A DNA stretch of 64,000 nucleotides from Imbricaverruca yamaguchii. Its lineage: Eukaryota > Arthropoda > Thecostraca > Neoverrucidae. This document shows positions 20,709-57,495 of this stretch, piece after piece (positions within the stretch are counted from its first letter, which is position 1; each line of letters starts with the position of its first letter). The notes beneath the pieces are model-generated. The model was not told where the DNA came from. It ran no database searches and saw nothing but the letters and a program-made list of their open reading frames with translations. The DNA is taken from assembly GCA_034440575.1 (NCBI GenBank), contig JAOTOL010001308.1:248001-312000 (forward strand), given 5' to 3'. The translations under genes were made by a program, and so were the position numbers.

Positions 20709-20813
20709 GGTTAGAATATTGGTTTTTCGTTAGGTGTGAGATGTCGAAATGAGCAGGGTAGGATGTCGAAATTTCCCATGGAATTAGTATCATTTACAAT
20801 GCTTTTGATGTCC
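20709..20813. repeat. left part of a dispersed repeat split by the TTAA element
   Basis: Closely matches 38748-38855 (shared TTAGGTGTGAGATGTCGAAA and the following bases, then AATGCTTTTGATGT). The right part continues after the TTAA element at about 22184. Confidence 0.8.
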
Positions 20814-27041: not shown

Positions 27042-27095
<54 letters not shown>

Positions 27096-33000: not shown

Positions 33001-36000
33001 AAGGTGGCCTCCGGTGGATCGGTAGCAAGGGTGGCCTCCGGCGGATCGGTAGCAAGGGTGGCTTCCGGCGGATCGGCGGTTAGGGTGGCCTCCGGTGGAT
33101 CGGCGGTTAGGGTGGGCTCCGGTGGATCGGCAACCAGGGTGCCCTCCGGTGGGTCGGCGGCCAGGGTGGCCTCCGGTGGATCGGCGACCAGGGTGCCCTC
33201 CGGTGGGTCGGCGGCCAGGGTGGCCTCTGGTGGATCGGCGGCCAGGGTGGCCTCCGGTAGGTCGATAGCCAGGGTGGCCTCCGGCGGCTCGGCGGCTAGG
33301 GTAGCCTCCGGTGTATCGGCGGCCAGGGTGCCGTCCGGCGGATCGGCAGCCAGAGTGGCTTCCGGCGGATCGGCAGCTAGAGTTGCCTCCGGTGGATCGG
33401 TAGCCAGAGTGGCCTCCGGCGCCTCGGCGGCGGGCCGGGTGGCGAGCGGCAGCGGCTCGGCGGCGCGCGTGACGTCGGCTGGCTCCGGCACGATGCGGCA
33501 GCGCTCCAGCAGCTCCGGTCTGAAGATGACCTCCAGCGGGTCGGGTGTGATGCCAGCCAGCTCCGCCACCACAGGTGAGCCGCGGCTCCTCGCGCCGAGC
33601 GGACGGCAGAGTGTGGGATGTTGGCGACCGCACAGGTGGCAGCACTGGCTGAATCGCAATACGCCGAACGTTCTGCTATAGAGCTATTTTTGTGAACACA
33701 AATGAGTGCACTTTATAGAACATACCATGGCGAAAGTTGCTGAAAATCAAACTCAAAAGGTCAGGTCAGGTATAAGTCATGTCAAAAGGTCAACACATCA
33801 GACATAATTCCAAGTGAAGGAATTGAAACTTGGATCGTTTTCAAAACATAATTATTAAGGCTTAAAAGATATAGTGGTCTGGCCGAACCTGATGAGACGC
33901 TCAGGTGAATCGTTTTCGTATGGACACTCAAGTCCGCTCGCTCGTTCTTCACCCTCGCTCCCAATAAACAGTGTTTGAAATGCTCCGCCGTGGCCCCAAA
34001 AGCTGGCGTATCAAATCCATTCTGTGCGAAGTGCCACTCTCGCTGAAGAAGACGCTAATGTCGAGTACCACCACCGGTATCCGGTGGTGGTACTCGACAT
34101 TGGTGTCTCGACCTCGGGTGACCACGAGCCCGCACTGTGAGTGCTGACCGTCGATGACTTCAGAGGTGGACGAAGTGTGGCTGCGGCGGTCGAACCGCCC
34201 TGCAGCCCAGCTGACCAGCAGACCACGTGGCAGGCGACCCTGAGGCCGAGCCGTCGGCCCTGCCGAGCAGCGAGTCCGGCCCGGCAGTGGCGGCGCGGGC
34301 GTCTCGCAGCGGCGGCTCGGGCGGCGCCGGCGCGGCCGGCAGCAGCGGCTCTGGCGCCGCGCTCCGCGGCTCCAGCCACGTCGGCGTCAAGTCGGCCCGC
34401 TCCGGCTCCGCGCAACAGTGTGAGTGGTGTGCAGTGTGGAGGTTTTGGTATGTGAAAAAGGTTTGTGCCCACCCAGGTTCAAACGCTAAGTCACTTAAAA
34501 CGGCTATATTTGGTACAGCTGGTGAGCATGACCATGTGCATTTCGCGGTATTCAGTCGCAGGACAATGACGCCGCACGTGGCTATCTGGTATATATAGTA
34601 TATATATGTATAATATATATATATATATGTATGTATGTATGTATATATATATATATGTATGTATATATCCCAGATAGCCCCGTGCGGCGTTTTTGTCCTT
34701 CGACTGAATGCCGCGAAATGCACATGGTCATGCTCACCAGATCCTCTTGGATAAAATGCAAGTCCTCTCACTATGCACCTCCTGCGATCTCACCGGAGGT
34801 GGAAGAAAATCATTCTCTGATTGATTTTATCCTGAAACGTACTGTTTCTGAAAATAAAAATCCTTGCTCTTGCTGCTGGCTTTTGCTAGGAGATTAAATG
34901 GTGTTCTTTTTGAAGTTATAGGAAGTACATGTTCAAGCCTTTCGATTTTGAACCCACTGTTTTTAGAAGATTTGACACAGTTTTGAAAGAAAGCTACGCA
35001 TGTGTCTCACCTTCTTCGAATTATTTTGCTTCTGCTTTCATTCATAGTCTGATCACTCCTAAACCATGGGACAAAGTTAGGTACCTCAAGAAGATTCGCA
35101 GGTGCAAAATTGGATATGTGTTGTAAGAGAGCTATTCTCAGAACATGATCAACTGTTAGCTATCTTCTTCCAATGCAGTGTCAAAATACAATTAGAGCGT
35201 TTAATGTGACGGCGGGTTGTGCGGCAGTGGCCGAGTCCTCCGAGGACACCACGTCCTAACGGCGGGTTGTGCGTCAGTGGCCGAGTCCTCCGAGGACGCC
35301 ACGTCCTAACGGCGGGTTGTGCGTCAGTGGCCGAGACCTCCGAGGACGCCACGTCCTAACGGCGGGTTGTGCGGCAGTGGCCGAGACCTCCGAGGACGCC
35401 ACGTCCTAATGGCGGGTTGTGCGGCAGTGGCCGAGTCCTCCGAGGACATCACGTCCTAACGGCGGGTTGTGCGTCAGTGGCCGACTCCTCCGAGGACACC
35501 ACGTCCTAACGGCGGGTTGTGCGGCAGTGGCCGATACCTCAGAGGACGCCACGTCCTAACGGCGGGTTGTGCGGCAGTGGCCGAGACCTCCGAGGACGCC
35601 ACGTCCTCATGGCGGGTTGTGCGGCAGTGGCCGAGTCCTCCGAGGACACCACGTCCTAATGGCGGGTTGTGCGGCAGTGGCCGAGTCCTCCGAGGACACC
35701 ACGTCCTAACGGCGGGTTGTGCGGCAGTGGCCGAGTCCTCCGAGGACGCCACGTCCTAACGGCGGGTTGTGCGGCAGTGGCCGAGTCCTCCGAGGACGCC
35801 ACGTCCTAACGGCGGGTTGTGCGGCAGTGGTCGAGTCCTCCGAGGACGCCACGTCCTAACGGCGGGTTGTGCGGCAGTGGCCGAGTCCTCCGAGGACACC
35901 ACGTCCTAACGGCGGGTTGTGCGTCAGTGGCCGACTCCTCCGAGGACGCCACGTCCTAACGGCGGGTTGTGCGGCAGTGGCCGACTCCTCCGAGGACGCC

Positions 36001-39000
36001 ACGTCCTAACGGCGGGTTGTGCGGCAGTGGCCGAGTCCTCCGAGGACACCACGTCCTAACGGCGGGTTGTGCGGCAGTGGCCGAGTCCTCCGAGGACACC
36101 ACGTCCTAACGGCGGGTTGTGCGGCAGTGGCCGAGTCCTCCGAGGACACCACGTCCTAACGGCGGGTTGTGCGGCAGTGGCCGAGTCCTCCGAGGACACC
36201 ACGTCCTAACGGCGGGTTGTGCGGCAGTGGCCGAGTCCTCCGAGGACACCACGTCCTAACGGCGGGTTGTGCGGCAGTGGCCGAGTCCTCCGAGGACACC
36301 ACGTCCTAACGGCGGGTTGTGCGGCAGTGGCCGAGTCCTCCGAGGACACCACGTCCTAACGGCGGGTTGTGCGGCAGTGGCCGAGTCCTCCGAGGACACC
36401 ACGTCCTAACGGCGGGTTGTGCGGCAGTGGCCGAGTCCTCCGAGGACACCACGTCCTAACGGCGGGTTGTGCGGCAGTGGCCGAGTCCTCCGAGGACACC
36501 ACGTCCTAACGGCGGGTTGTGCGGCAGTGGCCGAGTCCTCCGAAGACACCACGTCCTAACGGCGGGTTGTGCGGCAGTGGCCGAGTCCTCCGAGGACGCC
36601 ACGTCCTAACGTGTGCGGCAGTGGCCGAGTCCTCCGAGGACGCCACGTCCTAACGGCGGGTTGTGCGGCAGTGGCCGAGTCCTCCGAGGACACCACGTCC
36701 TAACGGCGGGTTGTGCGGCAGTGGCCGAGTCCTCCGAGGACGCCACGTCCTAACGGCGGGTTGTGCGGCAGTAGCCGAGACCTCCGAGGACGCCACGTCC
36801 TAACGGCGGTTTGTGCGGCAGTGGCCGAGTCCTCCGAGGACACCACGTCCTAACGGCGGGTTGTGGGTTGTGCGGCAGTGGCCGAGTCCTCCGAGGACGC
36901 CACGTCCTAACGGCGGGTTGTGCGGCAGTGGCCGAGTCCTCCGAGGACGCCACGTCCTAATGGCGGGTTGTGCGGCAGTGGCCGAGTCCTCCGAGGACAC
37001 CACGTCCTAACGGCGGGTTGTGCGGCAGTGGCCGAGACCTCCGAGGACGCCACGTCCTAACGGCGGGTTGTGCGGCAGTGGCCGAGTCCTCCGAGGACGC
37101 CACGTCCTAACGGCGGGTTGTGCGGCAGTGGCCGAGTCCTCCGAGGACGCCACGTCCTAACGGCGGGGTTGTGCGGCAGTGGCCGAGACCTCCGAGGACG
37201 CCACGCCGTCGCCGCTCAAGGCGCCGGCCGGGCCCGGTGGCGAATTCGAGGCGCTGGGGCGCGCCTCCGCCTCACGGCCCAGTCAGCTGGTGATGCGGGC
37301 CAGCGTCAGCGGCGGCGGGTTGCAGGTGTCGGGCAGTATCGACCACCACCACTACCACCACTACGAGGACGGCGGCGAGACCTCGGAGGTGAGGTCTGCC
37401 CTGCCGACCGGGCTGGCTGGTCAGATCGTCGTGCTGATGTCGGTTGTAGCGTCGTAGCTAATGTCGGTCGTAGCATCGTAACTAATGTCGATCGTAGAAT
37501 CGTAGCTAATGTCGATCGTACCTAATGTCGATTGTACCATCATAGCTAATGGCGACCGTAGTATCGCAACTAATGTCGATTGTAACATCGTAACCAGCGT
37601 CTGTTAAACAGCATTGGAGCTGATATTAGTCGTAATGTAGATATCGATCGTAGCATCGCAGGTGATATCGATGGCAACAACGTAGCTAATGGCGATCGTA
37701 ATTAATGTCGATCGCAACATCGTAGCTAATGTCGATTAAACGTAGGTAATGGCGATCAGCCAGCAATAGAATGAGATAAAGCTAATTTCCTCGAGGAATA
37801 GAACAAGGTTTCTGGGCGGGAGGGAAAGCAAGCACGTGACCAGTTTCAAGAATTCGAGGGTCTTCTAAACCGAACTGGGCCACGTGACAATCGAATGGGT
37901 TGTCTGCCGTGTGTGCGGATCTGAACTGATGCTCTGCATCAGATGACCGACGAACCGTCGGCCGAGCAAGATGAGCCGTCGGCTGACTACGACGATGAAC
38001 CGTCTGCTGAGTACGACGATGAACCGTCTGCTGAGTACGACGATGAACCGTCCGCCGAGTACGACGAGGACCCGTCCGCTGAGTACGACGAGGGACCATC
38101 CGCTGACTACGAGGCCGAAGAGTCCTGTCCGGATGGCTTCCAGGTCCAGCAGAGCAGCGACCTGACCTCGCAGCTAGAGGTCGGTCTCTGGCGGCACTGT
38201 GAGGAACAGCAGTGGTTTACGCAGTCACCAAAATGTACACCCTTGATCACAATGGATCTGGTTTGCGACTGTCTGCGGTAATTTGGTAGTTGCTGTGATC
38301 ATTATGAAAGGCTGGATATTGATCTACTTAGCCTCAACACTGACGTCAAGTTTGCAGCAAAATTTCACAATGAAGTGTATGCTTCAGCGATTTCTGTACT
38401 CATGGTATGGTTCGGCCCTACATCGGGGATATGAAAATCTGACTGTGGTGGTAACTGGCCATCAACCCAATGCAGTGTCCTGAGATTAGTCCACAGACAG
38501 GTGTCTGACGTAAATGAACTTCGGACGTTGATTTTGAAGTTGATTGATGGAGTTGACTGAGTTGATTTTGAAGGAAAACTTTGTCTGTAGGCTGATGACT
38601 GAATGTGCACAATCGTTTCAAACAATTGTGCGGATATACTTCACTGAGTGATTAACGGAGGGCATCTCTGGGTGTAGCTTTCCACCTGAAGCTCGGGAGT
38701 CGGGAGCACATCGTGTAGATTTTCGTAATTTGAACGTATCGTACTAGGGCAGGGTTAAAATAATGGTTTTTCATTAGGTGTGAGATGTCGAAACGAGCAC
38801 GGTAGGATGTCGAAATTTGCCGTGGATTTAGTGTCATTAAAAAATGCTTTTGATGTATTAGACTCAAAGTTGAGCTAATGGTTTAGTTACTTATGACAAC
38901 ATTTATCCTTTGGTTTGATTTGCATAATTTAAGAGCTATATAAGGGATAGAGAGAATAATAACTATGTTATACACTGGTATTGTATGCCAGATCACATTA

Positions 39001-42000: not shown

Positions 42001-43421
42001 TCATTCGAGCTAGATATGTGTCATTGCCCTCCGAATCCATTCCATTGCCGGAAGTCACAGAATTCGCAAGGAGTAATTCACCTAAGCTGAGAACACCTAT
42101 TTTGAATTATTTCGGCTGAAAATGAAATCAATTTGCTATTCTTGACCCCGTACGGACCAGTCCTGCTGACAATTTCGATGTATGTGCTACACTTCCGCAT
42201 GATGGAATTGGTTCTTTCCGGACGTTGTTTTTTCAATGTCGTTGTGTTCTGGTGCCTTTGGAACATTATGATGTCCATGTCAGCCTTTCTCCAATCTATG
42301 CAAGCGTTCTTGGAAGATCCTTAGCATTTTTCGCACGTACGCTGGTCTATTTTCTGTGAAATATGACTGACTCATGTTTACCCTTCAAATTTTCCATCTA
42401 CCCGCAGTTTGCATATTTTAATTGTATTAGGAGGCGGACGTTTAGTAATGCAGCTGGGGTTTATAAGCGCTTGTGGGACCATGTTGTTAGGGTGTCTTGT
42501 TTTAGAGTAACTCTTTTGTAGCTGTGACTGCGCATCGTATCGATGCAAGCGGAATCTTGTGCTCCTCGAGGTTATCCAAATAGGTGGAGTTAAAACTTTA
42601 AAACTGATAGGACTGCGCGACCCTTGTAAGTCATGCAACCAGTGTTTTCATTGCTGCGCGAATAGCGTGACAACAGACGACTGAGCTCGTCCTGGGCATG
42701 CAGTTCAGAATATGGCTACTTTGTGGATAGGTTTCCCCGTGACTGCATCACTAATTTGTATTTGGTTTGCTGTGCTCTCGTACAGCGTGGCAGTTTCATT
42801 GCAAACAGTGTAGGATTTTCCTTCATCGAAGACATTGAGCACTTGCGTCACGTGTTCTTAGCTGATTATAATTTGCCCTTCGACATTTGTGGGCCCGCTT
42901 TTGTCAGTTTGTGTTCACCTGTGTTTACTAGCAATACTTGGTTTCCTTTCTTGGTTAATTGAGAAGAAATTAATTGTGTTACGGTGTATTTTTTTCACAA
43001 ATTCATTGTATTTCGGTGTTGCTTTTTTCCTCGATTTTATGTTGTTAAAAAGAGATAATTTATCGATGCTATATATTTTGAAAGTTGGAGGCACTTGGTC
43101 CAAGTTTTATTATACAATTCACCCATCTTTCTGCGTACTTTCCGCCTTGCAGGAAGGATATCTAGGTTAGTAATTTTGTTTTTAAGCTTCTTCTGTCATC
43201 TGTCTCACAATAGTACTGTGACATAGTAAGCATATTAATTTATCACTCTTATTCTATGTTTTGTAACTTGCTTCACTGCATGGCTGTGAATCATTCGCTT
43301 TTTTAGGTAAACCACACCAGTGTCACATAATTTTTTATCGTCGGTTTGATGCTACGGTATGTAGCTTTTGCCTGCAATGATATTGTCGGCTCCTTGTTTT
43401 TGCGTATTTATTGCAGAAATG

Positions 43422-43490
<69 letters not shown>

Positions 43491-49400: not shown

Positions 49401-52400
49401 CCAGTACCTCTTCGGGGATGGTGATCAACTCCTCACCTCCCGGCAGCTTCTTGAAGCTGGAGTTGTAGGCCATCTCGTTCACCTTAGGGAGGAGGGAACA
49501 GACCGGTCCCATGAACCCCTTGTCCGAGCTGGTGGGACCGTCAATGGCTGTGATGAGGTGCCGCAGAGGAAGTTCGTTCGTGTGGAGGCAGCAGATGGCC
49601 CAGAACAGCTTTCTCCCCAGCAGCTTCTCTAGGTGGGCGTGGGTTCCCCCTCTCCACCCTGTGTTCTGGTTGGTGGAGTCACCCATCAGGATCTGGAGGG
49701 AGTCGATGGAGTTGTGCTTTTTCAGCAGTTCATACAAGGCCTGAGCAACCTTCAAAGCTGGCTTCTCGGGATGGATTGGTGGCTGAGGCACGAAGTGAGC
49801 CAGATACCTTCCACTTGGCTCTTCAGTTACAGACTCGTGATCTTCCTTGATCATCATCATCTTCAGTTTCCCCGAGCTGTCAGCAACCATTGCCCGGGTG
49901 CGGGGGTCCCTCCTCCCGTCGTAGCCCATGCCCACTATCTTGTCCGTCACGTGCCTTTCCTGGTCCTTCTCCTGGGCCCCGAGCATAGCTCTCTTCCTGG
50001 CCCTGACGAGCTTGCTGGGGTCGCAAGCCAGGTAGGACATTTCAGGAGCCAAGTGCCCAGCAGCAATGAGGTCCTTGAGGAAGTCTGTGGCTATGGCTGC
50101 AGCTGCTGTCGGGGACACTCCGCACCTGAGGCTCGCCCTGGCCGTGTTCAGCACTAGCATGGTGTTCCTCCTGGGTCCCGGACTCTCCAGGTACCTCAGC
50201 ACGAGCCAGGCGGCGTCACCCAGCCTCTCCTCCAAGAGGACATCCACCAGTCTCCTGGCATCCTCCTCCTGCTCCTTCGCCACACTAGCAGGCGGTTCAA
50301 ACACCTCTTCATCCTCTTCCCCCGATCCTCCCTGACACATGAGCTGGTTTACTTCCTCTTGCTGATCCATCAGCCTGCTCTCCACCTCCTCCTGCTTCCT
50401 CATCCTCTTCATGTCTGCTTCCTTCCCTGCAGCTTTTCGTTTAGCTGCTTTTTGCTGACGCCCAGATTCTTTCTTGTCATCACTTCCCATCATCATTTTG
50501 GACTTTTCTCCCCTTTTAGCTCTCTGGGCAGACATCCACCTGAGCTCCATCACCGGTACCTTGCTGGCCTGGGGGCAGGAGCACTTGATGTGAGCCTTGG
50601 TCTGGCACTCCTTGCCGGGGCAGCCAGATCCGGGCTCGTGGCAGAGCAGGATGGTGTGGGGGCAGGTGGTAATGTCCATCAAGTTGTCCAACATATCCAC
50701 CACCTTCTTCCTCTCTGCCTGCTTCGCCCTCCCCAGGGCAACTTCTTCCACTCTTCTCCAGAGCCTCCCCACCTTTGTCACGAGACTCTTCTCTTGAATG
50801 ATCACTGGAGGGCAGAACTTGGCATTAGATCTATGCCACTGGGCCAGGATCAGGGGAGCCAGCTCCTTAGCAATCTCCCCCACACTGATGTTCTTCTTGC
50901 CTCTCTCTTCCTCAATCATTAGCTGCTCCTTGATCAGAATACCCCTCTGGATCACAGTTCTCACGGTCGGCACTTCACTCGGGATAAACTCCTTCCCCTT
51001 TCCAACAAAATCACTCAACTTGCTGCCAGATTCATTCCTGGTCTTTGGCTTGGCTTTAGAGCCCCCTGGACTGGCCGTGACCATCTCTGTAGTCTGGCTT
51101 CTTGCTCGAATATCGAAACCTGAAAAAAAGAAGGCACATTAAAATTGGCACATTCAAATCGTCATTAAAAGGCACATTAAAATTGCGTGATCAGCAAGAA
51201 TCTGATGGTACAGATGTATGAATATTGTGTTAGATAAATGCGAATATCCGCTTCGCTGTGCTGTTTATGACGGTCACAGCTGCACTGACTTGTGCAGTGG
51301 AAGGCAGTTGATGGTTTGGGTTTGTGCTGGTTACACTTTTTGATCTATGGGAGGGGGGGCAATGGGGCTAAGCAATCTGAAGTGGTGGAATGCATTTTAG
51401 CCCCCTTAAAACTTGCCGCAAATGCATGGTAGGTATATGGAAAAGAGGGGGGCAAATGGGAAAAAAAACTATTTTTACTAGTTTTTCCCTCCCAAATCAA
51501 GCGGCTAGATCCGCCTCTGGCTGGCTAAGGCTGTAACATATGACAGTACATATAATACTCTATTAGATGTCTCGAAGGACCCATATAGATAATAGTAAAT
51601 GTTTTAAAATAACTCAAATACAACAAATCTAATAGATCCAAGAATGAAACCTTGTAACCTGACGCTTTTTCCTTGAGTAGGGCCAGGTAAGTCTAAGTGC
51701 GTGCTGATAAATTGCCCTATATCATTATCAATGCCCTTCAGAAGAGGCTTATTTCAAAATAATGGCTTTGTGACAGCATATCCTTGCTATATCAAGCATA
51801 TATAATTATTTCTTGAAATAAGAAGCCACTCTTCCATGTCATTGAGAGCTGATATCGGTGGTGTACCGAACTATTTTCATAAAAGTGCATTTTAACTACA
51901 GAAGGAAGGCTCAAATCGTTTTTTATATACCATACAGCCCCACTTTAAAATTACATTTTACATCAGAAAAAAACTGAGCCCAAGTTCAAATGTGTATTTA
52001 ATCATGACCAAAGGCATCTCACCGAGCCCTAATCCTCAGTGGGCTACAGTTGGTGATTGTCTCTGTGCCATCCTCAGTGGGCTACAGTTGGTGATTGTCT
52101 CTGTGCCATCCTCAGCGGGCTACAGTTGGTGACTGTGTCTGTGCCATCCTCAGTGGGCTACAGTTGGTAATTGTCTCTGTGCCATCCTCAGCGGGCCACA
52201 CTTGGTGATTGTCTCTGTGCCATCCTCGGTGAGCTACAATTGGTGATTGTCTCTGTACCATCCTCGGTGAGCTACAATTGGTGACTGTGTCTGTGCCATC
52301 CTCGGTGAGCTACAATTGGTGATTGTCTCTGTACCATCCTCGGTGAGCTACAGTTGGTGATTGTCTCTGTGCCATCCTCAGTGGCCTACACCAAGCAGGT

Positions 52401-55400
52401 GTCGCGCCGGTCCGTCGACAGCGACGGCATTACCGACTGCCTCGAGTCGAAGGCAGACGACACCTACATCAAGGCCGAGGGCAAAGGTTAGCCGGCAGAC
52501 GACGTGGAGCCCCAATCACGCCCACCATTGGGAGAGTATCATATCAATGCTGTGTCCCGTTTCACGACCTTGCTCCATATCCTGTGTTACTTGGCTGATG
52601 TGAGCGGGTCACGATCTTTTTAGTCTGTACACCCGGGTGTAAAAGTAAATCAATCATCGGTGTACCGAGAGTGTGACGTGGTGTCTCGTCAGGACGTTTG
52701 CTGTTTATTGACGGGATCCCCAGCTGACGAGCGCGCCGGTCCTCTGGCCTGGTACACGGTAAACTGGCTGAGAGCCAGTTGGAACGGCTGTTAATTCACA
52801 ATTCATCATCGTCTTTCCATCCTAGAAGGATGACGTGGTGACAGATCTTCCGCACAGACTTGGTACCAAATAGTTAGAACAAACGTGACGGCCAGGTTTT
52901 GTTTTGCACAGACGTGACGCCCCATATGCAATGCAGATGTAGTGCTCAATCTTCAGTACAGACTTTTTGCGCTATGTCCAGTGCAGACATGCAGCCAAAT
53001 TTTCATCGGAGACGTGCTGTTCGACTCAGTGCTACCTGACTGAGGTCGAGATGAATTTCCCACGATGCATCCATTTTTGGCGTCACATTTCTCAAGATCC
53101 CAAGATTGCACTTAGATGTTATTAACTCTTATTGAAGCCGTACATTCTCACGCGATAATATGTACGGGAAGTCGAGGAAAGTCGACCCAAGTTTTACTTG
53201 AAGAGGGCCTTGGGCTTACGTAGTGCGACTCTGTGTCCCTCAGAGGCTGAGGAGCAGAGCATCTGACCCACAGAGCCCCTCTCCCTGTGTCCATCAGAGA
53301 CGGACGTGTTCGAGTACCTGCGGCGCGAGTTTCCGTACGTGCACGTGTCCGGTGAGACCAAGCGGCGCCTGATGGGACAGTATCGCCAGCAGATGAAGTA
53401 CATCATGAGTCTGGTCGAGCCGATCGAGTCGAGGAAGATCAAAATACGGGTAGGTGCTGATCGTCAACGTCGCAACTACGCCACGTTTCTGACGACTAAC
53501 CAAGTCGAATGCTTTCCTGCAATGATGGCGTACCCGCTTCCTGAATCACCTGTTTCGATGGGGGGTATTTGCGGCGCTGGCGTAAAAGGAACGTTACTGA
53601 GACACTCCCACAAATCCACTGAGATATCCGTGAGTGATAATTACCGAGTGATCCAGGTAGTCGCCGCGCTTTGGGCTTGGTCTGCCAGTGCTGTTGAAGC
53701 CTTCCCGACAGTGTTTTCGAACAAGGCAAAACGCTGGGACAGCTCGGAGTACGACAAGGATGCGTGTTGGTGTCCACGACAACATTCGTCGTTCTGCAGA
53801 AGCGCGGCTGCTCGCGTCGCGATGCCGCCGACCCTGGAGCGGCGCTCGTGCAACGTCGTGGAGAAGGTGTTTGCGTTTGGGTGTTGCAGCCGCCACGACT
53901 GTGACGACGGTGTGACGATGCCGCGATAACGGCCGTGTCTGTCGGCAGCGGCGGGACGTGCTCCAGCGACAGTCGCTGCTGACGGACATCATGCGCCAGC
54001 AGAAGGTGCACGACCAGCGGTTTCGCGAGCTCTCCGACTGCAAGCGCCGCCAGATCAAGATCCGGTGAGTGGACGTCGCGTGCCGGATCAAGCTGTGGTG
54101 AGGCGTCACGGGGTAGTCGGGGGTGGGGATAAGGTGGCCGACCGTAGTGATGGTTCCAGCGGTGCTGAGCTGCGGCGAGGCGTCACGGGGTGGTCGGGGT
54201 GTGGGTAGGGTGGCGGGCTGCAGTGATGGTGTCACCGGTGATGCTGAGCTGTGGCGAGGCGTCACGTGGTGGTGGGGGGTGTGGGTAGGGTGGCGGGCTG
54301 CAGTGATGGTGTCACCGGCGTTGCTGAGCTGCGGCAAGGCGTCACGGGGTGGTCGGGGGTGAAGGTAGGGTGGCGGGCTGCAGTGATGGTGTCACCGGCG
54401 TTGCTGAGCTGCGGCAAGGCGTCACGGGGTGGTCGGGGGTGAAGGTAGGGTGGCCGACCGTAGTGATGGTTCCACCAGCGGTGCTGAGCTGCGGTGAGGC
54501 GTCACGGGGTGGTCGGGGGTGAGGGTAGGGTGGCGGGCTGCAGTGATGGTCCCGCCATCGATGTACGTGTATGCACGTCGGCAGTGTAGCATAGTCGCCA
54601 TTGCACGCGGAGCTCATCAATGGGCTCCGATTGCACTAGCTGCGTGTATTTCGGCTCCGCTGTCACCACGCGGCATGAAGGGCTGATAACTCCAAGTGGT
54701 GAGAGGTTTCAGTGATATTCAGGCTATGTTCTCGTCAAGTTATTTATTTATTTATTTATTTAACAATACATGCCCTCCACGTGCAGTGGCTGTTACGGAC
54801 AGCCATGAGACAAGTGCGTTGATGAGACTCAACGTCGCGGTCGGTTCCTCGTCCGACTGTCGTCAGACGTTCGAACCCTAAGCGACTCTGGTGCTTACGG
54901 CTCGGCGGGTGTGTTTGCCAATCCACACACCTTTGGGACGCCTGGCGACGACTGGGGAAGCAGTTGGTCGAGATGTTGTGGTCCGTGTAGCACATTTCAC
55001 TAAGCCAGCAGTCTGAATGGTGTCAGCATCGCACGCACTCGCAACTCGTCACGACCATTTAGACAAGCTATCGCCGGGCCGTGAATCTAGTTATATTTAA
55101 AAGAGTGCTAAATGATAAGAGCTTGGCGTCTCAAGAGTCAACTGGGTGTTGCACAGGCTGTATAGTTGTACCACGTACAGGGTGGTTCCGAAATGACATG
55201 ATTGGTGTGAAGCGGTCGTGTCAGCTGCCCACTGTGCCGTGTTATGGAATACTGATACGTGGGCCTACCCTGTGTGGTGATGGCTCTGATGGAGGAAAGA
55301 TACACGGCGAACCGTTTTGACTGTCTGAGCGCTGCAGCCCTCTCACGGTGGAGCGTCGCGATTGGTAGATGTCAGGAGCCGGTAGCGGCCAGAGGTTGCA

Positions 55401-57495
55401 TGGTGCACATTGTGGGGTAATGTGCTCGGGTATCTACAATCGCTTTGGTAGAGTTTTATCGCTTTATTCTCTTTATCTGCCTTCTGTCGCTCTCTCGTGC
55501 ACCCTGCTACCTCTTTTATATCTTTCCGCTCTCTGTGTATCTCGTTCCTTTCCTCATGGAATGTTTTGTTCATTTTTGTTCCGTCTATTCACCTGCTGTT
55601 TGTGTTCTCAGCTATCTTGCCCTGTTTATTTTTCTCCTCACCGGTTCCTGCTTCCACACTCTGTTTGTCTGTGTTACGATATCGCAGTCGATGATGAGGT
55701 TGTGGTGTGGATGCAACAGGAACGTGCCGAGAGACAGCAAGATCTCGTGTCTGCGGGCCCAGCGGTACGTCAGCTCGTTCCAGCAGCAATTCGAGTCGCG
55801 CTCTGCCCTCAACAAGAGCAAGGAGGAGCTGGTGAGTGGTGGCGGTGGTCTCGCTTGGCCTCTCCTGGCGCCGGTGCAGGGCCCGGTGCCGCGGTCCACC
55901 TGGTTAAGAGATGCAACTTCTCGGTCAGGAACCTTTGATGCGTGTTTGGTGTTGCATACTCTTTGATTGTTCTTTGGAAAACTGTCTGGTGCTTCATTGT
56001 GTCGTCCTCTCTGGTTATGGCGTCGAATCATGATCCCTCCCTATCCCTGATTCCCACCTTGTCTATCCGTGACGAGCGCACTAATATTGACGCTTGTAAC
56101 CGTGCCCAATGTCTAAGTTTGTGGCTTCGACGTTTCTTTAATGTTAACTTCCACCAATGACCATAGCCTCAATGGTGCACATCAACCTTTTAGCACCGTG
56201 ACATCATCTCCTGTTGTCGATGACTTCAGCGTGATGACCGGTCACTGTTTCAATGACCTCGACCTCTTCAGACCCAACCGCGCTCCCCATGACATTAAGA
56301 ATGCCCCAAGATCAACATCGGCCTGTCCTGGTGAGCTCGACCGATCCCCCACTGCGACCTGACGGGCCGGCCGCGCCGCCAGCTGCTGCGTGCCGTGTTC
56401 GAGGAGATGCTGGAGATCCAGCGGAGTCGGCTGCGCGCCGTGCGCCGGCTCGAGAAGGAGTCGATCCGCGAGTTCTACGACGCGAACGGCTACACGGCCG
56501 ACCTGAACCGCGTGCACCAGTACTACGAGGCCAACTTCCGCGACCTGGCGCAGCTGCTGGCTCGCGAGCGCGCCGACCTGACGCAGGCCGAGCGGCAGCA
56601 GCGGCGACTGGCCGACCGCATCCGGCGCGAGTTCAAGGACTACATGGAGGCGGACGTGCGCAGTCTCAACGACAAGATCGTCAACAGCTGGCAGCCGCAG
56701 TACAGGTGGGTGGGGAGGCTCCGGGTGCGGGTGGGTGGGGAGGCCCCGGGTGCAGGTGGGCGGGGAGGCCCCGGGTACATGTAGGTGGTGAGGCCCCGGG
56801 TGCAGATTGGCGGGGAGGCCCCGGGTACATGCAGATGGAGGCCCCGGGTGCAGGTGGGTGGGGAGGCCCCGGGTACATGCAGATGGAGAGGCACCGGGTG
56901 CAGATGGGCGGGAAGGCCCCGGGTACATGTAGGTGGTGAGGCCCCGGATGCAGGTGGGTGGGGAGGCCTCTGGTAAAGATGGGTGTGGATGCCCCGGGTA
57001 CAGGTTGGCGGTGAGACCTCGGGTACAGATGGGTGGGAATGTCCTGGGTGCAGGTGAGTTGTTGCATGGGGTGTCTGTTATAGGTGGTGGAGAGACCCTG
57101 GAATAGCTGGTAGGTTGGTAGGTGGAGTGTCTAGTGCATGTGGGTTGGGATGTGCAGGGTCTGGCATAGACGGACGGTTCGCACCTACAACAGATGAAGT
57201 ATCCGTTGAAGATGGGTAGTTACTTGACCATGGTAGCGTAGATGTTGACATTGTTTGCCTGACCGCAGTATTGTCAACGCATTACCGCATAAATCACAAC
57301 AATGCAATGGACTTCTTGTTACGAACATGAGAGGCTACGTCAGAACACTAGGTTGTAGCATTCACGAGCATCCCAGATCATTATTAATTCGATATTTCAT
57401 GAGCTTATCTGACGTGTCGCTGTTGCAGGGAGCTGGATGCGGATCGCGTGCGCAGCGACCTGTACCGAGCCAACTGGAAGTTCTGCGTCTCGTAG
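22758..57495 (+). CDS. CEP95: CEP95 homologue, centrosomal protein of 95 kDa (18 exons traced; first exon and one internal exon not found)
   Basis: Traced exons: 22758-22889, 23389-23589, 24156-24286, 25318-25430, 32664-33574, 34234-34419, 37180-37388, 37943-38179, 40487-40687, 41388-41445, 44576-44815, 45733-45862, 52382-52486, 53298-53449, 53949-54064, 55738-55831, 56383-56705, 57429-57495. All have AG/GT borders. Phases match at every junction except 41445/44576, which needs another small exon. The product is about 1,200 residues. The N-terminal helical CH-like region (LDLINIDLSHISGADV, YNLLEIF), the C-terminal coiled coil (FEEMLEIQRSRLRAVRRLEKE, YYEANF) and the tail ELDADR.RS follow the order I remember for vertebrate CEP95, a centrosome/spindle-pole protein of poorly known function. 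The middle is disordered: a Ser/Gly/Ala/Val repeat, then acidic repeats, then an Arg/Ser segment. Human CEP95 is about 820 residues; the excess lies in the middle. A BLASTP search of the joined exons would settle the name. Confidence 0.85.
23389..23589 (+). CDS. CEP95: CEP95 exon B (N-terminal CH-like region, second half)
   Basis: Acceptor TTCCACAG, donor GTAGGC. It encodes the best-conserved stretch: VQTLINHLALDLINIDLSH then ISGADVIAGD and IYNLLEIFCGLHKYL. Phase 1 in and out. The minus-strand ORFs over it are shadows. Confidence 0.9.
24156..24286 (+). CDS. CEP95: CEP95 exon C (acidic/serine linker)
   Basis: Acceptor GTGAACAG, donor CAG/GTCAGC, phase 1 in and 0 out. It encodes WNLEESLTETESELG, a run of serines and aspartates, then a Pro/Gln-rich end. 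It is followed directly by a 22-bp minisatellite. Confidence 0.75.
24297..25150. repeat. 22-bp minisatellite after exon C, decaying to the right
   Basis: About 15 tidy 22-bp units (TGACTGTGTCCCAGCCATGTAC and variants, 24310-24640), then increasingly degenerate TGTCCCAG-containing units to about 25150. It starts some 10 bases past the donor of exon C, and the first unit has a CCAG/GTGCTG reading like that donor, but derivation from the donor is less clear than at other introns. Confidence 0.9.
25318..25430 (+). CDS. CEP95: CEP95 exon D (Gly/Ala/acidic linker)
   Basis: Acceptor GGCCAG, donor CG/GTGAGT, phase 0 in and 2 out. It encodes EGDDGAAANAAGAG then GRETQEEDEGEPAVPR. Phase 2 fits exon E. 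Confidence 0.75.
25431..28526. other. CEP95 intron: no further exon recognised
   Basis: Intron sequence containing a duplicated segment around a poly(A) tract (26771-27147) and a GC-rich patch at 27430-28030 whose ORFs show no signature. A TTAACCCGCGCCGTCTCGG motif at 26660 resembles the end of the 12688 element, so a solo end may sit there. Confidence 0.5.
26771..27147. repeat. direct repeat flanking a poly(A)/AATA-rich tract
   Basis: TTTGTGCTCGGATAATTTTA, then ATCGTG, CATTTTTCATGTTCACAA at both 26775-26832 and 27092-27148. Between them lie C runs and about 90 bases of almost pure A (27001-27091). Confidence 0.85.
28527..29882 (-). mobile_element. TTAA-bordered non-autonomous element, copy 2
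   Basis: Both ends match perfectly over 20 bases when read inwards (TTAACACGCGCCCTGGAGGG), with TTAA duplicated. Orientation is opposite to copy 1 (20814-22183). An internal repeat of the left end begins at 28890 (GTTAACACACGCCCTAGAGG), so about 365 bases are duplicated at that end. The centre has the conserved AGGTCA/TGACCT half-site cluster. It lies in the CEP95 intron between exons D and E. Confidence 0.9.
29883..30325. other. CEP95 intron, nothing recognised
   Basis: Unique intron sequence without ORFs of interest. Confidence 0.5.
30326..30921. repeat. 16-bp minisatellite, about 37 copies
   Basis: Units TCATTTGTCATTTGTC with an exact 16-bp period (30422 to 30438) and occasional 7-9-bp insertions or deletions. 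It has no stop codons in any plus-strand frame, giving three overlapping false ORFs of repeating Cys/His/Leu/Ser/Phe residues. Confidence 0.97.
31255..32060. repeat. 32-bp minisatellite, about 25 copies
   Basis: Units GGTAACCGCCTCCTCCCGGC then AGTCATTGCCAC, 32 bp. Each contains a pyrimidine-rich tract followed by GGCAG, which resembles a 3' splice site, but it does not match the acceptor of the next exon. Confidence 0.95.
32110..32655. repeat. composite GACGTGG minisatellite, ~78-bp higher-order unit
   Basis: Nested repeats of GTCGTGACGTGG and GTCCGACGTCGTG modules, with a higher-order period near 78 bp. It ends a few bases before exon E. The GTCCGACGTCG module equals part of the exon E head (GTCCGACGTCGGCC), suggesting origin from that exon start. 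Confidence 0.85.
32664..33574 (+). CDS. CEP95: CEP95 exon E (303-codon Ser/Gly/Ala/Val repeat exon)
   Basis: Acceptor GTCGCTTCAG, donor ACAG/GTGAGC, phase 2 in and 1 out; both phases fit the neighbours. It encodes about 24 copies of a 9-residue repeat close to VASGGSxxR (27-bp unit, 32780-33430), with a unique head (SRPTSAGVRRSG) and tail (SSSGLKMTSSGSGVM). Because the unit is 27 bp, all frames on both strands stay open, including a 535-codon minus-strand ORF. Phase agreement, splice sites and similarity to exon F in composition make the plus strand the coding one. No counterpart is known to me in vertebrate CEP95; probably disordered. Exon status should be confirmed by RNA. Confidence 0.65.
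33575..34233. other. CEP95 intron, nothing recognised
   Basis: Unique sequence with a few AGGTCA-like words (33759-33772) and a small inverted repeat near 34058-34105, where CCACCACCGGTATCCGGTGG can fold back. Confidence 0.5.
34234..34419 (+). CDS. CEP95: CEP95 exon F (Ser/Gly/Ala-rich)
   Basis: Acceptor GTGGCAG, donor CAGT/GTGAGT, phase 1 in and out. It encodes GDPEAEPSALPSSESGPAVA then Ser/Gly/Ala/Arg-rich sequence to KSARSGSAQQ, similar in composition to exon E. Confidence 0.65.
34519..34740. repeat. 222-bp imperfect palindrome with TA/TATG core
   Basis: The left arm 34519-34589 and right arm 34669-34740 are about 90% complementary over 71 bases (CTGGTGAGCATGACCATGTG reads in from both ends). 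The 79-bp core is TA and TATG microsatellite. It would form a long hairpin in RNA or a cruciform in DNA. It may be a fold-back element whose core expanded. Confidence 0.9.
34741..35206. other. CEP95 intron, nothing recognised
   Basis: AT-rich unique sequence between the palindrome and the 50-bp array. Confidence 0.5.
35207..37179 (+). repeat. 50-bp minisatellite made of copies of the exon G 3' splice site (~39 copies)
   Basis: Exact 50-bp period (for example 35461 to 35511). Each unit reads CCTAAC (branch-point consensus), GGCGGGTTGTGCGGCAG (acceptor), then TGGCCGAG(T/A)CCTCCGAGG and ACGCCACG, the first 26 bases of exon G, then TCCTAA. The branch A is 18 bases before the AG in every unit. 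In the exon G frame each unit stops at TAA after ten codons. The last unit runs directly into the true exon at 37180. Units are nearly identical, so the array is young or homogenised. Confidence 0.95.
37180..37388 (+). CDS. CEP95: CEP95 exon G
   Basis: Acceptor TGCGGCAG, donor GAG/GTGAGG, phase 1 in and 0 out. It encodes AETSEDATPSPLKAPAG, then ALGRASASRPSQLVMRASVS, a His/Tyr run (DHHHYHHYEDGG) and ETSE. Its first 26 bases are repeated through the preceding array. Confidence 0.75.
37435..37760. repeat. ~24-bp degenerate repeat in the intron before exon H
   Basis: Imperfect units GTCGATCGTAGCATCGTAGC then TAAT, about twelve copies. Confidence 0.85.
37943..38179 (+). CDS. CEP95: CEP95 exon H (acidic 8-residue repeats)
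   Basis: Acceptor CTGCATCAG, donor GAG/GTCGGT (weak), phase 0 in and out. It encodes about seven 8-residue repeats close to DEPSAEYD (24-bp units), then SCPDGFQVQQSSDLTSQLE. The donor could also lie slightly downstream. The acidic, repetitive character suggests a disordered linker. Confidence 0.7.
38180..39357. other. CEP95 intron containing a dispersed repeat copy
   Basis: Contains the uninterrupted copy of the repeat also found at 20709-20813/22184-22385. Otherwise nothing is recognised. Confidence 0.5.
38748..39050. repeat. dispersed repeat, uninterrupted copy
   Basis: Matches both halves of the repeat that copy 1 of the TTAA element interrupts. At the point matching the insertion it reads GATGTATTAGACTCAAA, so it serves as an empty-site reference. 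Confidence 0.75.
39358..40065. repeat. 64-bp minisatellite, about 11 copies
   Basis: Units GTAGGCTGTACCTATGGGGT then GTAGCTGTGCTGGCC, TGTAGGGCAGGTGCC and AGGTGTAATATAGT; exact 64-bp period (39601 to 39665), nearly identical copies. Each holds a GGGCAG/GTGCCAG and GTAGCTGTGCTG pattern. It precedes a degenerate CTGCAGCTG tract and exon I. Confidence 0.95.
40100..40486. repeat. degenerate GCTGTACTGCAG repeats leading into exon I
   Basis: Many short units of TAGCTGTACTGCAGCTG and variants. They resemble the real acceptor (TAGCTATTCTGCAGCAG at 40470-40486), so the tract looks like decayed copies of it. Confidence 0.8.
40487..40687 (+). CDS. CEP95: CEP95 exon I (acidic)
   Basis: Acceptor TTCTGCAGCAG (40484 is an alternative start one codon earlier), donor GGG/GTAAGC, phase 0 in and out. 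It encodes SFDGRQTMQSLTPEEAG, a run of acidic residues (DEEEEEEEGDDDE), then DISRQLSEELETMRQSADVV. Confidence 0.8.
40712..41387 (+). repeat. 51-57-bp minisatellite made of copies of the exon J 3' splice site (~12 copies)
   Basis: Units read TCTCTGCTGCTG(T/C)CCAG then GTGGGTCTGGAGCTGCTCCC and GTCACTGG. The true junction is CTACGCTGCTGCTCAG then GTGCATCTGGGACTGCCCCT. Pyrimidine tract, AG and exon head all align. Each unit also has CAG/GTGGGT, a good match to a 5' splice site, so units could act as either site. Lengths vary by a few bases. Confidence 0.9.
41388..41445 (+). CDS. CEP95: CEP95 exon J (short)
   Basis: Acceptor CTGCTCAG, donor CTAG/GTAAGC. It encodes VHLGLPLASDVAGNLEGCL. It leaves in phase 1, whereas exon K needs phase 0, so either a small exon lies between them or this exon is not always used. 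Confidence 0.55.
41446..44575. other. CEP95 intron(s); an unseen exon is expected here
   Basis: A phase change (1 out, 0 in) requires an additional exon whose length is 2 modulo 3. The 41520-41950 part is GC-rich with ORFs on both strands, but I could not pick an exon. The rest is AT-rich, with a palindrome at 43398-43520. Confidence 0.5.
43398..43520. repeat. palindrome with (AT)n core
   Basis: TTTTGCGTATTTATTGCAGA, then AATGTATATGTA on the left, with the exact reverse complement on the right, around some 60 bases of alternating AT. It has the same design as the palindrome at 34519-34740 but unrelated arms. Confidence 0.92.
44576..44815 (+). CDS. CEP95: CEP95 exon K (Arg/Ser-rich)
   Basis: Acceptor GTGCCGCAG, donor GAG/GTGAGT, phase 0 in and out. 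It encodes PMERYGRLEDADDCRRRSRS, AEPRRDSSVSAHWPSRRRYR, then a Ser/Asp/Arg segment ending QQRNVETIAE. It is probably disordered, with many possible phosphorylation sites (inference). Confidence 0.75.
44816..45449. other. CEP95 intron, nothing recognised
   Basis: Unique intron sequence between exon K and the 36-bp array. Short ORFs only. Confidence 0.5.
45450..45725 (+). repeat. 36-bp minisatellite before exon L (~7 copies), acceptor-like
   Basis: Units GTCAGCTGCAGGTCAGCTTC then CAGGCCAGTGTGCCAT. The last units (CCAGACCAGTGTGCCGCGTCAG) grade into the true acceptor (CAGTGTGTTGTGTGCCGTCAG). The phrase CAGTGTG..G.GTCAG is common to both. Confidence 0.85.
45733..45862 (+). CDS. CEP95: CEP95 exon L
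   Basis: Acceptor GTGCCGTCAG, donor CAAA/GTGAGC, phase 0 in and 1 out. It encodes IRETAGERAITQTTREQTG then DQLQKETVTREVRRKVS and SAPHHDQ. Charged and helical. Confidence 0.8.
45985..46205 (+). repeat. 25-bp minisatellite after exon L (~8 copies), donor-like
   Basis: Units GTGGCAGAGTGGGCGTCCCA then TACCT. The real donor region reads CAAAGTGAGCGGTCCGTACCT (45859-45879): CA-AGTG-GCG-TCC--TACCT is common to both. Units therefore look like copies of the exon L 5' splice site. Confidence 0.85.
46320..46500. repeat. ~62-bp repeat, 2.5 copies
   Basis: TATGTCGGCGTTGTATCAAC preceded by a CCCGCAG/CCCCCAG and GTGCCTGGTT, present at about 46370 and 46432. It has an acceptor-like start (pyrimidines plus CAG). 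Confidence 0.75.
46500..47930 (+). repeat. 38-bp minisatellite made of copies of the exon M 3' splice site (left part, ~37 copies)
   Basis: Units GTGATTGTCTCTGTGCCATC then CTCAG, then TGGGCTACAGTTG. The true junction at 52361-52395 reads ATTGTCTCTGTGCCATCCTCAG then TGGCCTACACC. Sub-variants (GGTGAGCTACAATTG, GCAGGCTACACTTG) recur in blocks, showing segmental duplication within the array. The array is interrupted by a transposon and resumes at 52032. Confidence 0.95.
48500..48575 (-). mobile_element. tRNA-like SINE relic inside the transposon
   Basis: On the minus strand an A-box-like TTAGCTAAGTTGGTAAGGC is followed by a degraded B box. Weak evidence. Confidence 0.35.
48589..51084 (-). CDS. 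putative transposase, 831 residues, intact
   Basis: One uninterrupted ORF fills the transposon on the minus strand, so it is probably the transposase. Residues 141-170 carry a Cys/His cluster (CPHTILLCHEPGSGCPGKEC then CSC), a likely zinc site. Residues 190-245 are Lys/Arg-rich (possible nuclear localisation). Residues 245-300 are acidic and may form coiled coil. Residues 323-343 look helical. The core is MGDSTNQNTG (about 467-476), WAICCLHTNELPLRHL (about 495-510), then AIDGPTSS. The Asp residues may belong to an RNase-H-like active site (inference). I recall similar uncharacterised proteins with DST/DGT..NTG and NELPLRHL motifs in arthropods and cnidarians, without an assigned superfamily. 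An acceptor (TTTTTTTCAG) lies 35 bases before the ATG with the frame open, so an upstream exon may extend the protein. An AATAAA on the minus strand lies near 48113-48119. Confidence 0.8.
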   Translation of the reverse strand: MVTASPGGSKAKPKTRNESGSKLSDFVGKGKEFIPSEVPTVRTVIQRGILIKEQLMIEEERGKKNISVGEIAKELAPLILAQWHRSNAKFCPPVIIQEKSLVTKVGRLWRRVEEVALGRAKQAERKKVVDMLDNLMDITTCPHTILLCHEPGSGCPGKECQTKAHIKCSCPQASKVPVMELRWMSAQRAKRGEKSKMMMGSDDKKESGRQQKAAKRKAAGKEADMKRMRKQEEVESRLMDQQEEVNQLMCQGGSGEEDEEVFEPPASVAKEQEEDARRLVDVLLEERLGDAAWLVLRYLESPGPRRNTMLVLNTARASLRCGVSPTAAAAIATDFLKDLIAAGHLAPEMSYLACDPSKLVRARKRAMLGAQEKDQERHVTDKIVGMGYDGRRDPRTRAMVADSSGKLKMMMIKEDHESVTEEPSGRYLAHFVPQPPIHPEKPALKVAQALYELLKKHNSIDSLQILMGDSTNQNTGWRGGTHAHLEKLLGRKLFWAICCLHTNELPLRHLITAIDGPTSSDKGFMGPVCSLLPKVNEMAYNSSFKKLPGGEELITIPEEVLGNMSTDQKTCYKLVQAVKTGHLPPALQDMQCGQLCHARWLTTGQRLVFMWTRKHGLSGQNLKTLEILVKFCLEFYLKLYYDLKVKHFIVDAPYHILTSLRILKNQPNKVKDAVTFYVRTGAWYSHSECLLLSLLASSDPEDRKFAVNQILTLRRDGEYGDTSVRPRVTPKLNLSATTLIDLVAWKPGEVQEPSFTCSHSKAEIQGFLAEPFIPPKFSCHTQSTERCVKLVTEAAAAVCGQEARDGYIRARLQHREIMPVFTTKKHILTTF
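52032..52381 (+). repeat. 38-bp exon M splice-site array, right part (~9 copies)
   Basis: Continues the 46500-47930 array after the transposon. The last unit ends at the genuine exon M acceptor. Confidence 0.95.
52382..52486 (+). CDS. CEP95: CEP95 exon M
   Basis: Acceptor CCATCCTCAG, donor AAAG/GTTAGC, phase 1 in and out. It encodes MAYTKQVSRRSVDSDGITD then CLESKADDTYIKAEGK. Confidence 0.8.
52487..53297. other. CEP95 intron; duplicated acceptor near its end
   Basis: Mostly unique. CTCTGTGTCCCTCAGAGGCTG at 53231-53251 is a near copy of the exon N junction CCCTGTGTCCATCAGAGACGG (53283-53303), about 52 bases upstream: a single duplication of the 3' splice site. Confidence 0.7.
53298..53449 (+). 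CDS. CEP95: CEP95 exon N
   Basis: Acceptor TGTCCATCAG, donor CGG/GTAGGT, phase 1 in and 0 out. It encodes ETDVFEYLRREFPYVHVSG, then ETKRRLMGQYRQQMKYIMSL and VEPIESRKIKIR. Start of the conserved C-terminal half. Confidence 0.85.
53450..53948. other. CEP95 intron, nothing recognised
   Basis: Overlapping ORFs on both strands without signatures; the intron ends at GTCGGCAG. Confidence 0.5.
53949..54064 (+). CDS. CEP95: CEP95 exon O
   Basis: Acceptor CTGTCGGCAG, donor CG/GTGAGT, phase 0 in and 2 out. It encodes RRDVLQRQSLLTDIMRQQK then VHDQRFRELSDCKRRQIK, basic and helical. Confidence 0.85.
54065..54560 (+). repeat. ~80-bp minisatellite after exon O (~6 copies), donor-derived
   Basis: The first unit begins GATCAAGCTGTGGTGAGGCG, matching the exon O end plus donor GATCAAGATCCGGTGAGTGG. 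Later units carry GAGCTGCGG(T/C)GAGGCGTCACGG, then GGTAGGGTGGCGGGCTGCAG and TGATGGT. Confidence 0.88.
54735..54995 (-). mobile_element. SINE with (TAAA)n tail, minus strand
   Basis: On the minus strand a B-box-like GGGTTCGAACG is followed by a body (CATGGCTGTCCGTAACAGCC) and a tail of six TAAA units (54736-54761 on the plus strand as TTTA). The tRNA-like head is degraded. Confidence 0.55.
54996..55737. other. CEP95 intron, nothing recognised
   Basis: Pyrimidine-rich from 55460 to 55680. ORFs lack signatures. Confidence 0.5.
55738..55831 (+). CDS. CEP95: CEP95 exon P
   Basis: Donor CTG/GTGAGT is good. The acceptor GAGAGACAG has little pyrimidine tract but is the only nearby AG that keeps phase 2 open. 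It encodes KISCLRAQRYVSSFQQQFES then RSALNKSKEEL, matching in order the RAR.YY..YR segment of vertebrate CEP95. Confidence 0.75.
55832..56382. other. CEP95 intron, nothing recognised
   Basis: Unique sequence ending in the GC-rich acceptor GCCGCGCCGCCAG. Confidence 0.5.
56383..56705 (+). CDS. CEP95: CEP95 exon Q (C-terminal coiled coil)
   Basis: Acceptor GCGCCGCCAG, donor ACAG/GTGGGT, phase 0 in and 2 out. It encodes LLRAVFEEMLEIQRSRLRAV, VHQYYEANFRDLAQLLARER, then a long helix to SWQPQY. This is the strongest match to vertebrate CEP95 (FEE..IQ..RLR, YY...F..LA). Very GC-rich codons. Confidence 0.92.
56706..57075 (+). repeat. ~26-bp minisatellite made of copies of the exon Q 5' splice site
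   Basis: Units read GAGGCCCCGGGTGCAG then GTGGGTGGGG. The real junction is CCGCAGTACAG then GTGGGTGGGGAGGC. The array starts at the donor itself, and several units keep CAG/GTGGGT or ACAG/GT. About 12-14 units, with decay to the right. Confidence 0.92.
57429..57495 (+). CDS. CEP95: CEP95 last exon with stop codon
   Basis: Acceptor CTGTTGCAG, phase 2 in. It encodes ELDADRVRSDLYRANWKF then CVS and stop TAG (57493-57495). The vertebrate protein ends with a closely similar ELEADR.KSQL segment, which fixes the C-terminus. Confidence 0.92.

What the first reader, a model, noticed from the sequence alone, without database searches (positions are those of the whole stretch)
35207..57075. Minisatellites of one gene are tandem copies of its own splice junctions
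At least eight CEP95 introns carry arrays whose unit matches the neighbouring exon-intron border. Acceptor side: exons at 37180, 40487, 41388, 45733, 52382. Donor side: exons ending 45862, 54064, 56705. A single duplicated acceptor precedes exon N (53231), which looks like the first step. The unit always includes intron signal plus some exon bases, and the array ends at the true site. I recall amphioxus Adh-region minisatellites called 'mirages' with junction-containing units; this looks like the same phenomenon across many introns of one gene, probably in another phylum. A mechanism biased to splice junctions (for example R-loop or spliced-RNA-linked duplication) is inference.
Basis: partly seen in the sequence, partly recalled or inferred. 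Interest (0 to 1): 0.92.

Follow-up and report, generated by a model that had tools for sequence, protein, structure and literature searches.

The report
Barnacle gene with duplicated splice-site arrays
In one barnacle gene, three of the long tandem repeats inside introns are copies of the gene's own exon-intron border, the same oddity once described in amphioxus, and the repeats as a group lie unusually close to splice sites.

Summary
The window is barnacle DNA. I rebuilt CEP95 as a conceptual gene of 18 coding exons (19362-57495, 1202 codons), 82% identical over its C-terminal region to Amphibalanus amphitrite CEP95. Each scores far above all 400 random and all same-type junction controls. 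The exon at 41388 is not real: it breaks the frame and its peptide has no match in five homologues. Arrays at 40484, 45733, 45862 and 54064 do not clearly contain exon sequence; the duplication at 53231 is weak. A broader signal survives: 9 of 17 intronic minisatellites lie within 30 bp of a splice junction, 1.6 expected (p about 2.5e-6), weakened to p=0.0018 if seeds are limited to GC-rich intron sequence and lost if ancestral introns were very short. Junction-spanning minisatellites are known as amphioxus 'mirages' (PMC3087553, PMC3902484), so this is a new member of a known kind in another phylum. A splice-linked mutation mechanism is possible, not shown; the genome search did not complete.

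The parts
19362..57495 (+). CEP95 conceptual coding gene, 18 coding exons: 19362-19389, 22758-22889, 23389-23589, 24156-24286, 25318-25430, 32664-33574, 34222-34419, 37180-37388, 37943-38179, 40484-40687, 44576-44815, 45733-45862, 52382-52486, 53298-53449, 53949-54064, 55720-55831, 56383-56705, 57429-57495
   Evidence: Joined exons give one open frame of 1202 codons plus stop; tblastn and blastp against A. amphitrite CEP95 and a Logan protein; 82% identity over the 321-aa C-terminal region. Exons 19362, 24156, 25318, 34222, 37943 and 44576 had no tblastn hit below E=1 and rest on frame, splice signals and the protein alignment. RNA of this species not seen.
35209..37205 (+). 50-bp x 40 minisatellite that is a tandem copy of the acceptor of exon 37180, with 26 exon bases in the unit
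   Evidence: 40 acceptor copies counting the true one, 4 upstream copies identical to the exon's 26 bases
46497..47937 (+). Distal part of the 38-bp minisatellite copying the acceptor of exon 52382 (9 exon bases)
52032..52390 (+). Proximal part of the same 38-bp minisatellite, running 9 bp into exon 52382
56703..57056 (+). 25-bp x 14 minisatellite copying the donor after 56705, with 6 exon bases in the match
   Evidence: further donor-like copies
40128..40474 (+). 11-bp-based array ending 9 bp before exon 40484; unit matches the intron side only
32124..32640 (+). 26-bp-based array ending 23 bp before exon 32664; borderline junction match
40715..41397 (+).
24307..24969 (+). 22-bp array starting 20 bp after the donor at 24286; no clear junction match
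45433..45718 (+). 36-bp array ending 14 bp before exon 45733; junction match not clearly above controls
54091..54550 (+). 80-bp array starting 26 bp after the donor at 54064; junction match not clearly above controls
53231..53298 (+). Possible single duplication of the acceptor of exon 53298 (15-base match with one mismatch, weak)

Best explanation
Three minisatellites in this barnacle CEP95 gene are 'mirages': tandem arrays whose unit is the neighbouring exon-intron border. A short tandem duplication first copied a stretch that crossed a splice junction (inferred). Slippage or unequal exchange then multiplied it to tens of copies (inferred from array structure). The damage is tolerated because the extra copies end up inside the intron, and only the copy attached to the intact exon body and its partner splice site makes a proper exon (inferred, exon definition). 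That is why the array ends at the true site and why the unit length need not be a multiple of three, while the two arrays inside exons here are multiples of three (27 and 24 bp). In this gene minisatellites in general lie next to splice junctions more often than chance. GC-rich exon edges probably contribute, and a junction-linked mutational bias may too.
For: Unit-to-junction matches far above random and same-type junction controls at 37180, 52382 and 56705, with exon halves that few swapped exons equal (alignments). Both halves of the split 52382 array match equally. The exon bases concerned code for residues shared with A. amphitrite: ETSED..PSP; M(A/S)YTKQ; SWQPQ(Y/F)R, so the exon is the likely source and the array the copy. 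Use of any of the 39 upstream AG copies at 37180, or of the 26 upstream AG copies found at 52382, brings a premature stop. Of four donor-like copies downstream of 56705 with scores near or above the true one, three end translation inside the retained array, before the last exon, and the fourth shifts the frame. Junction-array periods 50, 38 and 25 are not multiples of 3; the two coding arrays are. 9 of 17 intronic minisatellites are within 30 bp of a junction, 1.64 expected, reached in none of 400,000 random placements.
Against: Only 3 of the 9 sites named pass. No RNA from this species was seen, so use of the true sites rests on frame and homology. The donor case rests on 6 exon bases, equalled by 4-10 of 500 swapped exons. 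The gene was picked after the fact, and the 30-bp threshold was chosen after seeing the data (10, 20, 40 and 60 bp give p=0.0019, 0.00034, 2.5e-6 and 5e-5). Arrays in one intron are not independent.
Confidence: 0.72

Rival explanations
1. A mutational process linked to transcription or splicing (R-loops, paused polymerase, junction-linked breaks) seeds tandem duplications at splice junctions, so mirages are the visible end of a junction hotspot.
For: Array ends cluster at junctions, 9 of 17 within 30 bp, and still 9 against 3.24 expected if seeds are limited to intron sequence with GC of at least 0.60, p=0.0018. Three spanning units against 0.33-0.48 expected.
Against: One gene, chosen because it looked striking. 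No common G-rich strand among the three solid arrays. The effect vanishes if residual introns are capped at 150 bp (p=0.23).
Confidence: 0.25
2. The closeness to junctions is a by-product: introns were very short when the arrays began, so any array was near an end; later growth and transposons lengthened them.
For: Capping residual introns at 200 bp leaves p=0.048, at 150 bp p=0.23.
Against: The six introns without TRF arrays from the second coding exon onward are 499-811 bp (lengths); a cap of 500 bp still gives p=0.00027. Does not explain units that contain exon bases.
Confidence: 0.25
3. The exon edges were recruited from older intronic arrays by a shift of the splice site (exonisation), rather than the arrays being copied from exons.
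For: Array and exon border are almost identical at 37180 (60 aligned bases without mismatch, one gap).
Against: The residues coded by the shared bases are shared with A. amphitrite.
Confidence: 0.05
4. The arrays are functional: decoy splice sites that lead to nonsense-mediated decay and tune the amount of CEP95 by copy number.
For: All 39 upstream acceptor copies at 37180 keep AG and each leads to a premature stop; 37 of the 40 copies have a CTAAC/T-like branch site.
Against: No RNA or expression data; the same pattern follows from neutral copying.
Confidence: 0.07

Closest known systems
'Mirages' of amphioxus: Adh3, globins BflGb6 and BflGb9, troponin C, and similar imperfect repeats in PGBD5 (PMC3087553, PMC3902484: passages read; the Adh paper, Canestro et al. 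2002, seen only as a citation)
   Same: Minisatellite-like tandem copies spanning an exon-intron boundary, on acceptor or donor side, splice signals repeated, units of tens to 160 bp (Adh3 10-72 bp; globins 150-160 bp)
   Different: Different phylum (barnacle); three in one gene, one with 40 copies; closeness of the gene's arrays to junctions was measured here. Regular RNA splicing and length polymorphism are reported in amphioxus, untested here
Internal tandem repeats at exon-intron boundaries of human genes in segmental duplications (PMC2812944: passages read, among them part of the abstract)
   Same: Minisatellites placed at exon-intron boundaries of genes
   Different: There they change exons or create new introns among paralogues; here no new intron is shown
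Intron gain by tandem duplication, 'introns from tandem arrays' (Zhuo et al. 2007, seen only as a citation; potato RdRp case PMC4974935, search listing only)
   Same: Tandem duplication involving splice signals
   Different: No novel intron position shown here; existing introns appear enlarged
Intronic motifs and minisatellites linked to multiple alternative splicing decisions in C. elegans (PMC4039745, search listing only)
   Same: Minisatellites in introns of spliced genes
   Different: Whether its units copy junctions cannot be told from the listing

Membership tests
Mirage minisatellite (amphioxus type) | Tandem repeat unit spans an exon-intron boundary | tested here: met
Mirage minisatellite (amphioxus type) | Either the 3' or the 5' boundary can be duplicated | tested here: met
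   Two acceptors, one donor
Mirage minisatellite (amphioxus type) | Many copies keep AG or GT splice signals | tested here: met
   All 39 upstream copies at 37180; 26 of 42 copies at 52382, the true site being one of the 26; four donor-like copies after 56705 scoring near or above the true donor
Mirage minisatellite (amphioxus type) | Splicing of the mRNA remains regular | not testable with these tools
   No RNA of this species; full frame only with the border copies at 37180 and 52382 among the copies tested. P0001, encoded by a 1478-nt Logan contig of a relative, aligns from exon 44576 to the end
Mirage minisatellite (amphioxus type) | Length polymorphism, also somatic | not testable with these tools
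   One sequence only
Mirage minisatellite (amphioxus type) | Occurs in several genes of the genome | not testable with these tools
   Genome search did not complete
Intron gain by tandem duplication | Intron at a new position flanked by duplicated sequence | not tested
   Intron positions of relatives were not available; only proteins were

The most novel reading that the evidence does not exclude
Barnacle (and perhaps other) genomes have a mutational hotspot for tandem duplication at transcribed splice junctions, so that most intronic minisatellites start there, mirages being those whose seed crossed the border.
Probability: 0.25. Interest if true: 0.8.

Novelty: new member of a known kind. 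Interest (0 to 1): 0.5.

Why it matters
In the papers I could search, mirages under that name were described only in amphioxus. Finding them in a barnacle suggests they may be a general outcome in minisatellite-rich animal genomes. They provide natural tests of how splicing chooses among dozens of near-identical acceptors. The closeness of array ends to junctions turns the question of where minisatellites start into a countable genome-wide test.

Tried and rejected
Rejected: exon at 41388 (frame; no homologue hit); the claim that every unit holds exon bases; an R-loop strand signature (mixed skew).

Inconclusive: scoring the acceptor copies with a small position matrix from the gene's other acceptors. 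At 37180 none of 39 copies reaches the true site with 16 or 20 intron bases (in one search: true 10.27, copy median 4.38), but 34 of 39 do with 12; the true copy has one extra G in this stretch. At 52382 15-16 of 25 upstream copies reach the true score. So a stronger true site at 37180 is possible but not shown.

No extra evidence: Pfam on a 630-aa joined part of CEP95 gave no family up to E=1, and the 849-aa minus-strand ORF one hit at E=0.74 below cut-off. A first ranking against all junctions put the own junction first for 37180, 52382, 56705, 40484, 32664 and 24286, sixth for 45733, third for 45862 and twentieth for 54064; there two coding arrays also ranked first for their own exon's acceptor. 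The genome search did not complete. Paper searches without a barnacle or crustacean mirage: (open-licence PMC papers only; one search returned none at all).

Rows dropped before counts: in the main distance test six TRF rows (poly-A, two TA-rich rows, the 366-bp x 2 element, a 61-bp row, a row inside the transposon) and the distal part of the 52382 array with the adjoining 46369 row; with the six rows kept and the array counted once it is 9 of 23, p=2e-5. An earlier version without the first intron and with the distal part kept gave 9 of 16, 1.96 expected, p=1.5e-5. Nearby or array-covered junctions were left out of the same-type controls. Coding arrays are not in the distance test. Exon coordinates were up to nine bases off at several exons and were corrected.

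Full report
What the window is. The region is barnacle DNA. A conceptual protein joined from exons found by eye matched four A. amphitrite CEP95 records at 71-82% identity over the 321-aa C-terminal region, and a 398-aa product of a 1478-nt Logan contig at 82%. The species was not determined; a single-exon gene elsewhere in the window is closer to Pollicipes pollicipes (69%) than to A. amphitrite (49%). tblastn of these proteins, splice signals and exon phases gave a complete model: 18 coding exons, 19362-57495, join into one frame of 1202 codons with a start and a single terminal stop. Six of the 18 exons had no tblastn hit below E=1 and rest on frame, signals and the protein alignment. The Logan protein aligns from exon 44576 to the end. 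No RNA of this species was available.

It is 58 bp; exons 40484-40687 and 44576-44815 join in phase without it, and its 19-aa peptide has no blastp hit up to E=10 in five homologues. The neighbouring protein stretch is poorly conserved, so the frame is the main argument. What looks like an exon there is the last, degenerate copy of the array 40715-41397.

Do the units match the borders? For each array, copies next to the junction were left out and the rest was compared with the 60 bases around the junction; the alignment had to cross the border. Controls were 400 random array-free 60-mers and 13-15 real junctions of the same type. A second control kept the intron half and swapped the exon half for other exon pieces. 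Three sites pass: the acceptors at 37180 (105 against a random maximum of 28; exon half 0 of 500) and 52382 (73 against 23; exon half 0-6 of 500 at 6-9 exon bases), and the donor after 56705 (44 against 19; exon half 4-10 of 500). The matched exon parts are 26, 9 and 6 bases. The acceptor at 40484 matches on the intron side only. The sites at 45733, 45862 and 54064 and the single duplication at 53231 are not convincing. Across all 34 junctions the own junction ranks first for its own intron 7 or 8 times, 2.0 expected (p=0.0032 strict, 0.00065 loose). Five are first in both scorings; the other two (strict) and three (loose) are not.

The array at 52382 lies in two pieces, 46497-47937 and 52032-52390, separated by a 4.1-kb insertion whose ends carry the same inverted sequence next to TA. 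Both pieces match the junction equally. So the array was probably already large when the insertion happened (inference).

Direction of copying. The exon bases inside the units code for residues shared with A. amphitrite: ETSED with PSP at 37180, M-A/S-YTKQ at 52382, SWQPQ-Y/F-R at 56705. The exon is therefore the likely source. In the 37180 array four upstream copies are identical to the true 26 exon bases, while the commonest form (17 of 40) differs.

Where arrays lie. Independently of unit content, 9 of 17 intronic minisatellites have an end within 30 bp of a splice junction; placing each array at random in the rest of its intron gives 1.64, and none of 400,000 placements reached 9 (p about 2.5e-6). 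With six further TRF rows kept it is 9 of 23 (p=2e-5). Other thresholds give 4 of 17 at 10 bp (p=0.0019), 6 of 17 at 20 bp (p=0.00034), 10 of 17 at 40 bp (p about 2.5e-6) and 10 of 17 at 60 bp (p=5e-5). Intron sequence near exons is richer in GC (0.61 within 30 bp, 0.46 beyond 120 bp), and if seeds are confined to intron sequence with GC of at least 0.60 the excess shrinks to 9 against 3.24 (p=0.0018). If residual introns are capped at 200 bp the excess is marginal (p=0.048), and at 150 bp it is gone (p=0.23). The six introns without TRF arrays from the second coding exon onward are 499-811 bp, which speaks against very short ancestral introns but does not exclude them. Random seeds would give 0.33-0.48 units that span a junction; three were found (p=0.005-0.013). 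All these figures come from one gene that was singled out because it looked striking.

How the cell may cope. Each of 39 upstream acceptor copies at 37180 retains AG, and use of any brings a premature stop; the same holds for 26 upstream AG-bearing copies at 52382 found with the motif (a slightly different motif finds 25). Of four donor-like copies after 56705 scoring near or above the true donor, three end translation inside the retained array before the last exon and one shifts the frame. A protein close to that of A. amphitrite is encoded if the border copies are used. The simplest account is exon definition: only the border copy sits on an intact exon with a partner splice site at normal distance (inference). 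Whether the true acceptor at 37180 is intrinsically stronger than its copies is unclear: none of 39 copies equals it in a 16- or 20-base model, 34 of 39 do in a 12-base model. Unit lengths at the borders (50, 38, 25) are not multiples of three, while the two arrays inside exons (27 and 24 bp) are, as expected if selection sees the protein only.

Comparison. [quoted passage not shown] the globin paper states that both boundaries can be duplicated and that regular splicing seems undisturbed (PMC3087553, PMC3902484; passages read). Human repeats at exon-intron boundaries are described in PMC2812944 (passages read). Nine paper searches listed no such report for a barnacle or other crustacean in this library. 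This is a new member of a known kind, in another phylum and with three cases in one gene. A junction-linked mutation mechanism remains open and needs a genome-wide count, which could not be made because the genome search did not complete.

Noticed in passing
47938-52031, ORF 48589-51138 minus: A 4.1-kb DNA-transposon-like insertion with inverted ends (GGGCTCGGTGA next to TA on both sides) and an 849-aa ORF without a Pfam family above cut-off sits inside the 38-bp array and splits it.
   Followed up: partly
32788-33431 and 37970-38112: Two minisatellites lie inside CEP95 exons (27 bp and 24 bp units, both in frame), coding 9-aa and 8-aa repeats; A. amphitrite CEP95 has a similar Ser/Ala/Gly-rich repeat region at the first.
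   Followed up: partly
3497-4114 minus: Single-exon gene of about 205 aa, 69% identical to Pollicipes pollicipes LOC119095994 and 49% to A. amphitrite FJT64_003937; three further hits are unnamed ENA contigs; no Pfam family up to E=0.1. Both named hits are barnacles.
   Followed up: partly
61594-62310 plus; 62911-63315 plus; 7889-8371 minus: Pieces of non-LTR-type retrotransposons: endonuclease domain (PF03372, 1.4e-12) and two reverse-transcriptase fragments below Pfam's cut-off.
   Followed up: no
28527-29251 and about 20800-22200: A 366-bp element in two tandem copies; by eye similar stretches recur, partly inverted, in the first CEP95 coding intron, so probably a mobile element family.
   Followed up: no
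19845-19930: By eye a tRNA-like (SINE-like) stretch interrupts a degenerate TACCCTA-rich region in the first CEP95 coding intron; not tested.
   Followed up: no
201-371: (ATG)57 trinucleotide run.
   Followed up: no
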